NCBI RefSeq assembly: GCF_023159225.1
Contig: NC_063188.1
Location: 36,322,021-36,386,020 of the forward strand
From: Perognathus longimembris pacificus
Taxonomy: Eukaryota > Chordata > Mammalia > Rodentia > Heteromyidae
DNA length: 64,000 nt
Direction of reading: 5' to 3'
Below, piece by piece: positions 1-63,274 of the stretch. Position numbers and translations under genes: made by a program. Position 1 is the stretch's first letter. Each line of letters begins with the position of its first letter. The notes below the pieces were generated by a model. It was not told the DNA's origin. It was given only the letters and a program-made list of their open reading frames with translations, and did no database searches.

Positions 1-618
1 AAGGCCTTGTAGAATTCAGCTGTGAATCCATCTGGACCTGGGCTTTTCTTGGATGTGAGATCACTTATTGCCATTTCTATTTCATTACGGGATATGGGTG
101 TGTTTAGAAGGTTTAAATCTTCATGGTTGAGTTTGGGGATATGAATCTTTTCTAGAAAATCATCCATTTTTTCCAAGTTCTCGAACTTGTTGGCATAAAG
201 GTTTGCAAAATAGTCCCTTATTATGGTCTGAATTTTGGTTGTTTCTGTGGTGATGTTACCTGATTCATCTCTTATCTTGTTTATTTGAGTGTGCTGCCTT
301 CGTTTTTTGGTCAGGTTTGCTAGGGGTCTGTCTATCTTGTTGATTTTTTTCAAAGAACCAACTATTTATTTTGATTTTTTCGATGGCTTTTTTTGTCTCT
401 AATTGATTTAATTCTGATTTGATTTTAATTATTTGCTTCCATCTATTGACTTGGGGTTTGGCTTGTGGTTCTGTTTCAAGGAGGTTAAGGTGCTTCCTTA
501 AATGATTGAGTTGCTGCTTCTCCAGTTTGTTCATGTATGCATTCAGAGATATAAATTTTCCTCTGAGTACTGCCTTTGCTGTGTCCCACAGGAGCTGGTA
601 TTTGTGTCCTCAACTTGG
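1..618 (-). mobile_element. L1 LINE, inverted 5' segment (ORF2 linker to start of RT)
   Basis: Read on the minus strand this encodes L1 ORF2 from the region after the endonuclease to the beginning of the reverse transcriptase. Recognisable stretches are SWFFEK near 340-360 and a GPDG..AEFY-like start of RT at the left edge. The frame is open from 534 to 265 and then shifts. It meets the plus-strand L1 at about 618-622 head to head, as expected of a 5' inversion made during insertion. The left end lies outside the window. Confidence 0.88.
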
Positions 619-2500
619 TTGAGGCAAAGTTGCAGGATATAAAATAAACCCTCAAAAATCAACGGCCTGTCTCTATGCTAACGACCCAAAGACCCTGGCT
701 GAAATCAGGAAAACAACTTCTTTTGCAATAGCCTCAAAAAATATAAAGTACCTAGGAATAACCTTAACCAAAGAAGTGAAAGACCTCTACGATGAGAACT
801 TTAAAAACATGAAAAACAAAATTAAGGCAGAACTAAGGAAATGGAAAAACCTCCCATGCTCCTGGATTGGGAGGATTAATATAGTCAAAATGGCAATATT
901 GTCAAAGGCTATCTACAAATTCAATGCAATACCCATTAATATGCCAACACCATTTTTTTTTTTTTTGTCCAGTCCTGAGGCTTGGACTCAGGGCCTGAGC
1001 ACTGTCCCTGGCTTCTTTTTGCTCAAGGCTAGCACTCTGCCACTCGAGTCACAGCGCCCCTTCTGGCCATTTTCTGTATATGTGGTGCTGGGGAATCGAA
1101 CCAGGGCCTCATGTATATGAGGCAAGCACTCTTGCCACTAGGCCATATCCCCAGCCCGCCAACACCATTTTTTAATGAAATAGAAGAAGCAATCCTGAAA
1201 TTCATATGGAAAAATAAAAGACATAGAATAGCAAAAACAATCCTAAGCAGAAAGAACGGTGCTGGAGGAATTACAATACCCAACTTAAAGCTGTATTATA
1301 AAGCTATAGTAATAAAAACAGCTTGGTGTTGGCACCGGAACAGGCCTGAAGACCAATGGAACAGAATTGAAGACCCAGAAATGAACACTCAGAACTATGC
1401 CTACTTAATCTTTGATAAAGGAGCTAAAACAATAGTCTGGAAGAAAGATAGCCTCTTTAACAAATGGTGCTGGCAAAGCTGTTTCAACACATGCAACAAA
1501 CTGAAACTAGATCCTTATAAATCACCCTGCAAAAAATCAATTCCAAATGGATCAAAGACCTCAAAATCAAAACAGACACCATGAAAACACTAATCGAAAG
1601 AGTAGGAGAAACACTTGGGCTCCTTGGAACAGGAAGGAACTTTCTTAACAAAGACCCAGAAAGGCTGCAAATCAAAGAAAGGTTAGACAAATGGGACTGC
1701 ATCAAACTGCAGAGCTTCTGCAGGGCAAAGGACATAGCTCACAAGATAAACAGAAAGCCCACAGACTGGGAGAAGATCTTTACCGGCCATTCAAAGGACA
1801 AAGGCCTCATACCTAAAATATATGCAGAACTAAAAAAATTACCTTCCTCCAAAACAAAACTGCAAAGAACCAATAGCCCCCTCATCAAGTGGGCTAAAGA
1901 CTTGAAAAGAGACTTCTCTGATGAGGAAATGAGAATGGCCAAGAGACATATGAAAAAGGGCTCTACATCACTAGCCATAAAAGAAATGCAAATCAAAACA
2001 ACATTGAGATTCCATCTCACCCCAGTAAGAATGTCCTATGTCAAGAAAACTAACAATAACAACTGTTGGAGGAGATGTGGCCAAAAGGGAACCCTACTTC
2101 ATTGTTGGTGGGAATGTAAACAGGTTCAGGCACTCTGGCAAGCTGTATGGAGATTCCTCCAAAGGCTAAACATGGAACTCACCTATGACCCAGCAGCCCC
2201 ATTTTTGAGTGTCTATTCAAAAGACAACAAACAAGAACATACTAAAGCCACCAGCACAACAATGTTCATCGCAGCACAATTTGTCGTAGCTAGAATCTGG
2301 AACCAACCCAGATGCCCCTCAGTAGACGAATGGATCAGGAAAATGTGGTACATATACACAATGGACTTTTATGCCTCTATCAGAAAGAATGACATTGCTC
2401 CATTTGTAAGGAAATGGAAGGACTTTAAAAAAGTTATGTGAAGTGAGCCAGACCCAAAGAAACATGGACTCTATGGTCTCCCTTATAGGGAATAATTAGC
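619..2500 (+). pseudogene. L1 ORF2 C-terminal remnant
   Basis: This is a fragment of the L1 ORF2 endonuclease/reverse transcriptase protein, covering the thumb-like region and the C-terminal Cys-rich domain. The longest open stretch is 1581-2441 (286 aa). A CX3CX7HX4C motif, typical of the ORF2 C-terminus, is coded at 2064-2117. Breaks are a SINE insertion at 958-1157, a frameshift near 1530-1560 that splits the frame ending at 1584 from the one starting at 1581, and a small deletion near 2436 that brings an early stop. The usual family end appears to be near 2500. The endonuclease and RT catalytic motifs are absent from this segment, so it cannot code for an active protein. Confidence 0.85.
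958..1157 (-). mobile_element. IDL-Geo-type SINE inserted in L1 ORF2
   Basis: This is a full two-part SINE in reverse: T-rich tail at 953-967, Geo-type module, then the ID-like head ending in ccccagccc. It is flanked by a perfect 15-bp TSD (gccaacaccattttt) at 943-957 and 1158-1172, which proves insertion into the existing L1. Confidence 0.93.
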
Positions 2501-3060
2501 ATAGGTTTAGGCAAGTCTCAGCAGTGGATCACAGGAGCCCAATGTCTATACCTTTATGAACACATAAAATGATGCTAAGTGAAATGAACACCATGTTATG
2601 GAAATGATTGTTATATCACAGTTGTAACTACTTTCAACATGCCATATGTAACTGTAGCCTCTATTATTGATGATCTTCTTGTATCACCTTCCTTTGGTTG
2701 TACCTACATTTTCTCTGTATCTTATCTGAGTATATTGGAAACCGGGTATACTGGTATTAGAGCTAGGAAATTGGAAGTGAATACCAAAAATGAGAGACAC
2801 AGGGTAAAAAAAGACCAACAACTGCAAAAGCAATACTTGCAAAACTGTTTGGTGTACATGAGCTGAACAACACATGGGGGGGGAGGAAAGGGAAACGGGA
2901 GGGGGGAGGGGGGAGGGGGGAATGAGGGAGGACGTAACAAACAGTACAAGAAATGTATCCAATGCCTAACGTATGAAACTGTAACCTCTCTGTAATTCAG
3001 TTTGATAATAAAAAATATATGTGTATAAAAAATAAAATATTAAACAAATTTAAAAAAAAG

Positions 3061-62160: not shown

Positions 62161-62811
62161 ATTTTTTTCAAATTTTTTATTATCAAACTGATGTAGAGAG
62201 GTTACAGTTTCATATGTTAGGCATTGGATACATTTCTTGTACTGTTTGTTACCACGTCCCTCATTCCTCCCTTCCTCCTCCCCCTTTCCTTTTCCACCCA
62301 TGAGGTGTTCAGTTCACTTACACCAAACAGTTTTGCAAGTATTGCTTTTGTAGTTGTTTGTCTTTTTTTACCCTGTGTCTCTCGATTTTGGTATTCCCTT
62401 TTAGTTTCTTAGTTCTAAAACCACTATAGATGGTTTTCAATATACTCAGATAAGATTACAGAGATAGTGTAGATACAACCACAGGAAGGTGATACAAGAA
62501 CATCATCAATAGTAGAAGCTACATATACACATGGGACGTTGAAAGTAGTTACAACAGTGATTTAACACTCGTTTCCATAACATGGAGTTCATTTCACTTA
62601 GCATCATCTTATGTGTTCATAAGGGTATAGCTTTTGGGCTCTTGTGAACCTCTGCTGTGACTTGCCTAAACCTGTGCTAATTATTCCCAGTAAGGGAGAC
62701 CATAGAGTCCATATTTCTTTGGGCCTGGCTCACTTCACTTAGTATAATTTTTCCTAAGTCCTTCCATTTTCTTACAAATGGGGCAATCTCATTCATTCTG
62801 ATAGAGGCATA
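62161..62811 (-). mobile_element. L1 LINE, sense 3' segment of a twin-primed insertion
   Basis: Reverse L1 3' end and 3' UTR (ttattatcaaactgatgtag, pyrimidine tract at 62250-62300) up to the last ORF2 codons (attctgatagaggcataa). The TSD actttctaagaat lies at 62148-62160 and 63262-63274. Confidence 0.94.
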
Positions 62812-63261
62812 AGAGACTTCTCTGATGAGGAAATAAGAGTAGCCAAGAGACATATGAAAAAGTGCTCTACATCACTGGCCATAAAAGAAATGCAAATCAA
62901 AACAACACTGAGATTCCATCTCACCCCAGTAAGAATGTCATATATCAAGAAAACTAACAATAACAATTGTTGGAGGGGATGTGGCCAAAAGGGAACCCTA
63001 CTTCATTGTTGGTGGGAATGTAAACTGGTTCAGCCACTCTGGTAAGCAGTATGGAGATTCCTCAGAAGGCTAAATATAGAACTCCCCTATGACCCAGCAA
63101 CCCCACTTTTGGGTATCTATCCAAAAAACCACAAACAAAATCACAGTATAGCCACCAGCACAACAATGTTCATTGCAGCGCAATTTGTCATAGCTAGAAT
63201 CTGGAACCAACTCAGATGCCCCTCATTAGATGAATGGATCAGGAAAATGTGGTACATATAC
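62812..63261 (+). mobile_element. L1 LINE, inverted segment of the same insertion (ORF2 C-terminus)
   Basis: The plus strand encodes ORF2 MKKCSTSLAIKEMQIKTTLR and the CX3CX7HX4C motif, ending at gtggtacatatac. The sense arm resumes in L1 after a loss of only about 11 nt. Confidence 0.93.
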
Positions 63262-63274
63262 ACTTTCTAAGAAT

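What the first reader, a model, noticed from the sequence alone, without database searches (positions are those of the whole stretch)
1..63274. Six head-to-head (5'-inverted) L1 insertions in one window
L1 copies at 1-3060, 29341-30500, 50078-52574, 59378-61365, 60388-60895 and 62161-63261 each consist of an inverted 5' arm joined to a sense 3' arm. Several have clean TSDs around the whole unit. By contrast the non-inverted young copies (9981, 20599, 24351, 36689) are mostly very short. Twin priming is known for L1, but in human only a minority of copies carry it. Every L1 here longer than about 1.2 kb, except the ancient L1M remnants, is inverted. Either this lineage's L1 RT has a strong bias to twin priming, or the window is a chance cluster.
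Basis: partly seen in the sequence, partly recalled or inferred. Interest (0 to 1): 0.75.

Follow-up and report, generated by a model that had tools for sequence, protein, structure and literature searches.

The report
Ordinary twin-primed L1 insertions
Six copies of a common jumping gene (L1) in this stretch of mammal DNA have their front end flipped, which is the usual result of a known way in which L1 inserts itself, and their share among the copies here is about what is seen in human and chimpanzee.

Summary
In detail: six L1 units each have an upstream piece inverted and joined to a sense 3' piece. Three (D, E and the nested N) have target-site duplications of 16/16, 17/18 and 16/16 bases around the whole unit; C has a 9-base one; B (old) shows none; A runs off the window. 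Break points differ, so these are separate events. The anatomy is that of twin priming (5' inversion).

The proposed lineage bias is not shown. A 3'-end profile finds 14 L1 copies, 5 inverted; with old copy B, 6 of 15. Human plus chimpanzee have 639 of 2068 (31%), or 639 of 1733 non-full-length (37%) (PMC2912911); against these P is 0.30-0.63, against lower human figures (18%) 0.04-0.10. Only three copies exceed 1.2 kb of L1 sequence. Inverted copies are longer here (P 0.0016), partly because they sum two cDNAs. Among copies of 500 bp or more, 6 of 8 are inverted (P 0.01-0.03 at 31-37%), but that cut was chosen afterwards. A moderate bias is not excluded. The genome-wide count could not be run: the genome search did not complete (ten tries).

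The parts
1..612 (-). Copy A, inverted arm (ORF2, about residues 283-482 of human ORF2p by the two pieces searched); continues beyond the window start
623..3059 (+). Copy A, sense arm to the A-rich tail; a SINE is inserted at about 954-1157
29341..29533 (-). Copy B (old), inverted arm
29552..30500 (+). Copy B (old), sense arm; starts about 29552 by eye; a SINE is inserted at about 30223-30420; 3' end not recognised by the profile
50078..51724 (-). Copy C, sense arm (3' end on the left)
51725..52573 (+). Copy C, inverted arm (reverse transcriptase region); outer 9-base repeat TAATAATGT at 50069-50077 and 52574-52582
59377..60938 (-). Copy D, inverted arm, interrupted by nested copy N
60939..61365 (+). 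Copy D, sense arm to the A tail
59362..59377 (+). Copy D, TSD left copy (16 bases); right copy 61366-61381
60385..60723 (-). Copy N (nested in D), inverted arm; TSD 60372-60387 and 60895-60910, 16/16
60724..60894 (+). Copy N, sense arm to the A tail
62166..62815 (-). Copy E, sense arm (3' end on the left); TSD 62148-62165 and 63262-63279, 17/18
62811..63263 (+). Copy E, inverted arm (blast ends overlap the sense arm by 5 bases)
36690..37816 (+). Non-inverted copy, about 700 bp of L1, two SINEs inside (comparison)
48750..49410 (+). Non-inverted older copy, about 660 bp (comparison)
24351..24432 (-). Non-inverted copy of about 85 bp with a 16/16 TSD (comparison)

Best explanation
The six units are ordinary L1 insertions with a 5' inversion made by twin priming. 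The L1 endonuclease nicks the target and the L1 RNA's A tail primes a first (sense) cDNA. Before that is finished the second strand is cut and its overhang pairs inside the L1 RNA, priming a second cDNA towards the RNA's 5' end. Joining the two gives TSD - inverted upstream piece - sense 3' piece - A tail - TSD. Shown here: the two arms in all six, TSDs around both arms in three and weakly in a fourth, arms that meet within 20 nt in three of five. Inferred from the known mechanism: the priming steps. The share of inverted copies (5 of 14, or 6 of 15) needs no lineage bias.
For: Two arms in opposite orientation with the tail at the outer end; TSDs with 4000-pair control; in C, E and N b and c lie 0-15 nt apart, where unrelated arms would lie within 20 nt about 1.7% of the time each (P 5e-5 for three of five) and 132 of 287 human inverted inserts do (PMC12016303); repeats of 1, 3 and 2 bases shared between TSD and inverted arm in D, N and E, none in C (coordinates); endonuclease-like sites in C, D, N and E read by eye; share of inverted copies as in human plus chimpanzee.
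Against: The five longest copies are all inverted (P 0.002) and 6 of 8 copies of 500 bp or more are (P 0.013-0.033 at 31-37%, below 0.001 at 18%), more than the human germline figures lead one to expect, where inverted and non-inverted inserts have like lengths (1363 and 1330 bp). No TSD is shown for A or B, and C's is short. D lacks about 980 nt between its arms.
Confidence: 0.9

Rival explanations
1. Lineage bias: this species' L1 machinery or its host makes twin priming clearly more often than in human (for example over half of truncated copies).
For: 6 of 8 copies of 500 bp or more and 5 of 8 younger copies are inverted; inversion rates differ widely among human source L1s (0 to 55.6%; 21-46%), so a high rate is possible.
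Against: Overall share 5/14 or 6/15 fits 31-37%; small numbers, cut-off chosen afterwards, window singled out for this feature.
Confidence: 0.08
2. Each unit is two separate L1 insertions of opposite orientation, or a copy inverted after insertion by recombination.
For: B and A have no TSD shown here; D's arms lie about 980 nt apart in L1 coordinates.
Against: TSDs enclose both arms in D, N and E and no second A tail lies at the inner junctions; the arms abut in L1 coordinates in C, E and N.
Confidence: 0.01
3. Assembly artefacts.
For: No reads were available to check.
Against: All scorable junctions differ, TSDs are exact or nearly so, and later insertions lie inside some units (a SINE in A and in B, N in D).
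Confidence: 0.01

Closest known systems
Human and chimpanzee 5'-inverted L1 insertions (twin priming; Ostertag and Kazazian 2001, known here only through papers that cite it, since it is not held; numbers from PMC2912911, passages and sections 5 and 8)
   Same: Inverted upstream piece, sense 3' piece, outer TSDs, small overlaps at the junctions, about the same share of copies
   Different: Another mammal; inverted copies are the longest copies in this small sample
Human polymorphic and somatic L1 inserts with 5' inversion (PMC12016303, passages and section 8)
   Same: Arms often within 20 nt (132 of 287); overlaps as in B are reported
   Different: Lower share (18.4% germline, 21.9% somatic); germline inverted inserts no longer than others
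Mouse de novo L1 insertions (PMC9719517, passages)
   Same: Inversion in a rodent: 3 of 10 non-full-length insertions in single-cell clones, 1 of 2 in bulk lines
   Different: Very small numbers and another rodent lineage; many full-length inserts, none in this window

Membership tests
L1 (LINE-1) retrotransposon | L1-type ORF2 sequence | tested here: met
   Seven pieces of A, C and D match solved human L1 ORF2p; B, E and N are tied to them by blast. Pfam named one of the three L1 pieces given to it (RVT_1, piece of C).
5'-inverted L1 insertion (twin priming) | Inverted upstream piece joined to a sense 3' piece with the tail at the outer end | tested here: met
   Six of six units; B's 3' end is not recognised by the profile
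5'-inverted L1 insertion (twin priming) | TSD around the whole unit | tested here: met
   D, N and E; weak in C; not found in B; A not testable
5'-inverted L1 insertion (twin priming) | The two cDNAs come from neighbouring parts of the RNA | tested here: met
   0, 6 and 15 nt apart in C, E and N; overlap of about 35 nt in B; gap of about 980 nt in D; A not testable. A gap or overlap is reported for some human inserts too.
5'-inverted L1 insertion (twin priming) | Two priming events on one RNA | not testable with these tools
   Needs an experiment
Lineage with a raised twin-priming rate | Inverted share above that of other mammals | tested here: inconclusive
   5 of 14 and 6 of 15 fit 31-37%, 6 of 8 above 500 bp is nominally high; the genome search did not complete

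The most novel reading that the evidence does not exclude
In this lineage an L1 insertion that gets beyond the first few hundred bases is usually resolved by twin priming, so that mid-length and long truncated copies are mostly inverted and simple truncation is left to very short copies.
Probability: 0.08. Interest if true: 0.5.

Novelty: already known. Interest (0 to 1): 0.12.

Why it matters
As it stands, little: it adds clean examples of a known insertion mechanism in a mammal, probably a rodent, for whose group I saw no published L1 inversion rate in the listings (listings and some passages only). If the long-copy bias were real genome-wide, comparing this L1 and its host with human and mouse would bear on what decides between simple truncation and twin priming.

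Tried and rejected
Rejected: two separate insertions, or inversion after insertion (TSDs enclose both arms in D, N and E). Rejected as evidence of a bias: the 1.2-kb cut-off, which covers three copies. Checked whether the 36690 copy hides an inverted arm upstream (36200-36690): no L1 peptide match and no Pfam match for one frame on each strand. The peptides used cover ORF2 only, from about residue 283, so an inverted arm from ORF1 or the 5' UTR would not be seen there or beside the other short copies. Three short copies have repeats at their ends (24341 16/16, 1 of 4000 random pairs as good; 20596 9/9, 70 of 4000; 22052 8/8, 219 of 4000), which speaks for simple truncation; for 9981, 28564, 36690, 48751 and 18651 the script found nothing above chance. 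Tried for independent copies: viral contigs by protein gave one distant locus, 53% identical, not used; a 28-base 3'-end pattern gave none. Rfam and tRNA scans were empty. The genome-wide count was asked for ten times in the same form and never answered.

Limits of the counts: the lengths used are approximate figures that I entered by hand from the blast coordinates. 'Younger' copies there are eight that I grouped by similarity to A (A, C, D, N, E, 20596, 24341, 36690), with 9981 (78% identical) left out. The 3'-end profile was built from twelve of the fourteen copies that it finds, so it adds two (20596, 24341) and shows that few others are there, no more. Two weak rows of that call (35556-35634, E 0.024; 2641-2662, E 0.69) were not counted, two further rows are the SINE-split halves of counted copies, and an old fragment without a 3' end (14644-14797) was left out.

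Full report
What is there. Self-comparison of the window, comparison with blocks of copy A and peptide comparison show six L1 units in which an upstream piece is inverted and joined head to head to a sense 3' piece. Seven pieces read from copies A, C and D match solved human L1 ORF2p, so these are L1; B, E and N are tied to them by blast. The units, with the outer start of the inverted arm (b) and the inner end of the sense arm (c) in copy-A numbering: A, sense arm from 623, outer end outside the window; B, 2215 and about 2180; C, 1361 and 1362; D, 1614 and 2593; N, 2843 and 2859, lying inside D's inverted arm; E, 2359 and 2366. The five scorable pairs all differ, so the units are not duplicates of one event.

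One event each. Direct repeats at the outer boundaries were scored by script with 4000 random boundary pairs as control: D 16/16 (1 of 4000 as good), N 16/16 (1 of 4000), E 17/18 (2 of 4000), C 9/9 (70 of 4000), B 7 (661 of 4000; no evidence). A's left end is outside the window. No second A tail is seen at the inner junctions. In C, E and N the arms meet within 20 nt in L1 coordinates; unrelated arms would do so about 1.7% of the time each, and 132 of 287 human inverted inserts do so (PMC12016303, section 8 seen). Overlaps such as B's are described there, and inversions with an internal deletion, such as D's, in PMC2837659 (passages seen). Read by eye, the target sites of C, D, N and E are of the TTTT/A kind or near it (C TTTT/AA, D TTTT/C, N CTTT/AA, E TTTT/CA). 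This is the anatomy of twin priming; the priming itself is inferred.

Is the number unusual? A profile of the L1 3' end finds 14 copies in the window (SINE-split pieces counted once; twelve of the fourteen were used to build it). Five of the 14 are inverted (A, C, D, N, E). With B, whose 3' end is not recognised, it is 6 of 15. In human plus chimpanzee 639 of 2068 TSD-flanked L1 insertions are inverted, 639 of 1733 if full-length ones are set aside (PMC2912911, section 8). Against these, P(5 or more of 14) is 0.45 and 0.63, and P(6 or more of 15) 0.30 and 0.50. Against the lower shares among polymorphic human insertions, 165 of 897 (PMC12016303, passages) and 298 of 1634 (PMC5668948, passages), P is about 0.10 for 5 of 14 and 0.04 for 6 of 15.

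Length. By approximate net length the five longest copies are all inverted (P 0.002 if labels fall at random), and inverted copies are longer (Mann-Whitney P 0.0016; 0.025 with the sense arm alone). Part of this is built in, since an inverted copy sums two cDNAs: human somatic inverted inserts are longer too (medians 541 against 308 bp), though germline ones are not (1363 against 1330 bp), and a colorectal cancer study says that inserts with an inversion tend to be longer (PMC13009371, passages). Among copies of 500 bp or more, 6 of 8 are inverted (P 0.013-0.033 at 31-37%; below 0.001 at 18%). This is the strongest result against an ordinary reading. It rests on eight copies, a cut-off chosen afterwards and a window singled out for this feature, so I do not take it as evidence of a lineage bias, nor can I exclude a moderate one. 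Inversion rates vary among human source L1s (0 to 55.6% among the three most active), so a source effect is also possible.

Where it comes from. The window holds a SINE of about 200 bp. From recall it is made of two ID-like halves, the kind described in geomyoid rodents (kangaroo rats, pocket mice, gophers); no call confirms this. The literature searches listed no paper that I could see to give an L1 inversion rate for this group; for mouse I saw 3 of 10 and 1 of 2 non-full-length insertions (PMC9719517, passages).

Verdict. The one test that would settle the bias, a genome-wide count, could not be run because the genome search did not answer in ten tries.

Noticed in passing
37289-37741 and 20660-20904: Three SINE copies sit at nearly the same place in the L1 3' UTR (AAGAAATGTATCCA) in two different L1 copies; two of them lie head to tail in one copy with the target word repeated three times.
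   Followed up: partly
52574-52588, 52870-52884, 50069-50077: The older L1 fragment at about 52604-52868 and copy C appear to share one target word (TAATAATGTTTTTTT 15/15 on either side of the old fragment, and TAATAATGT beyond C), as if L1 had used one site twice.
   Followed up: partly
13908-14226: A perfect AGG array of about 106 units (100% matches), open in five long reading frames.
   Followed up: no
52150-52215: A local duplication of some 30 bases inside copy C's inverted arm, seen by eye.
   Followed up: no
49520-49963 (-): An open frame of 147 codons next to copy C without a Pfam match; may be chance.
   Followed up: partly
L001:2609-3496: An IMG/VR contig encodes a mammal-type L1 ORF2 C-terminal part (53% identical); it may be host contamination in that collection.
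   Followed up: no
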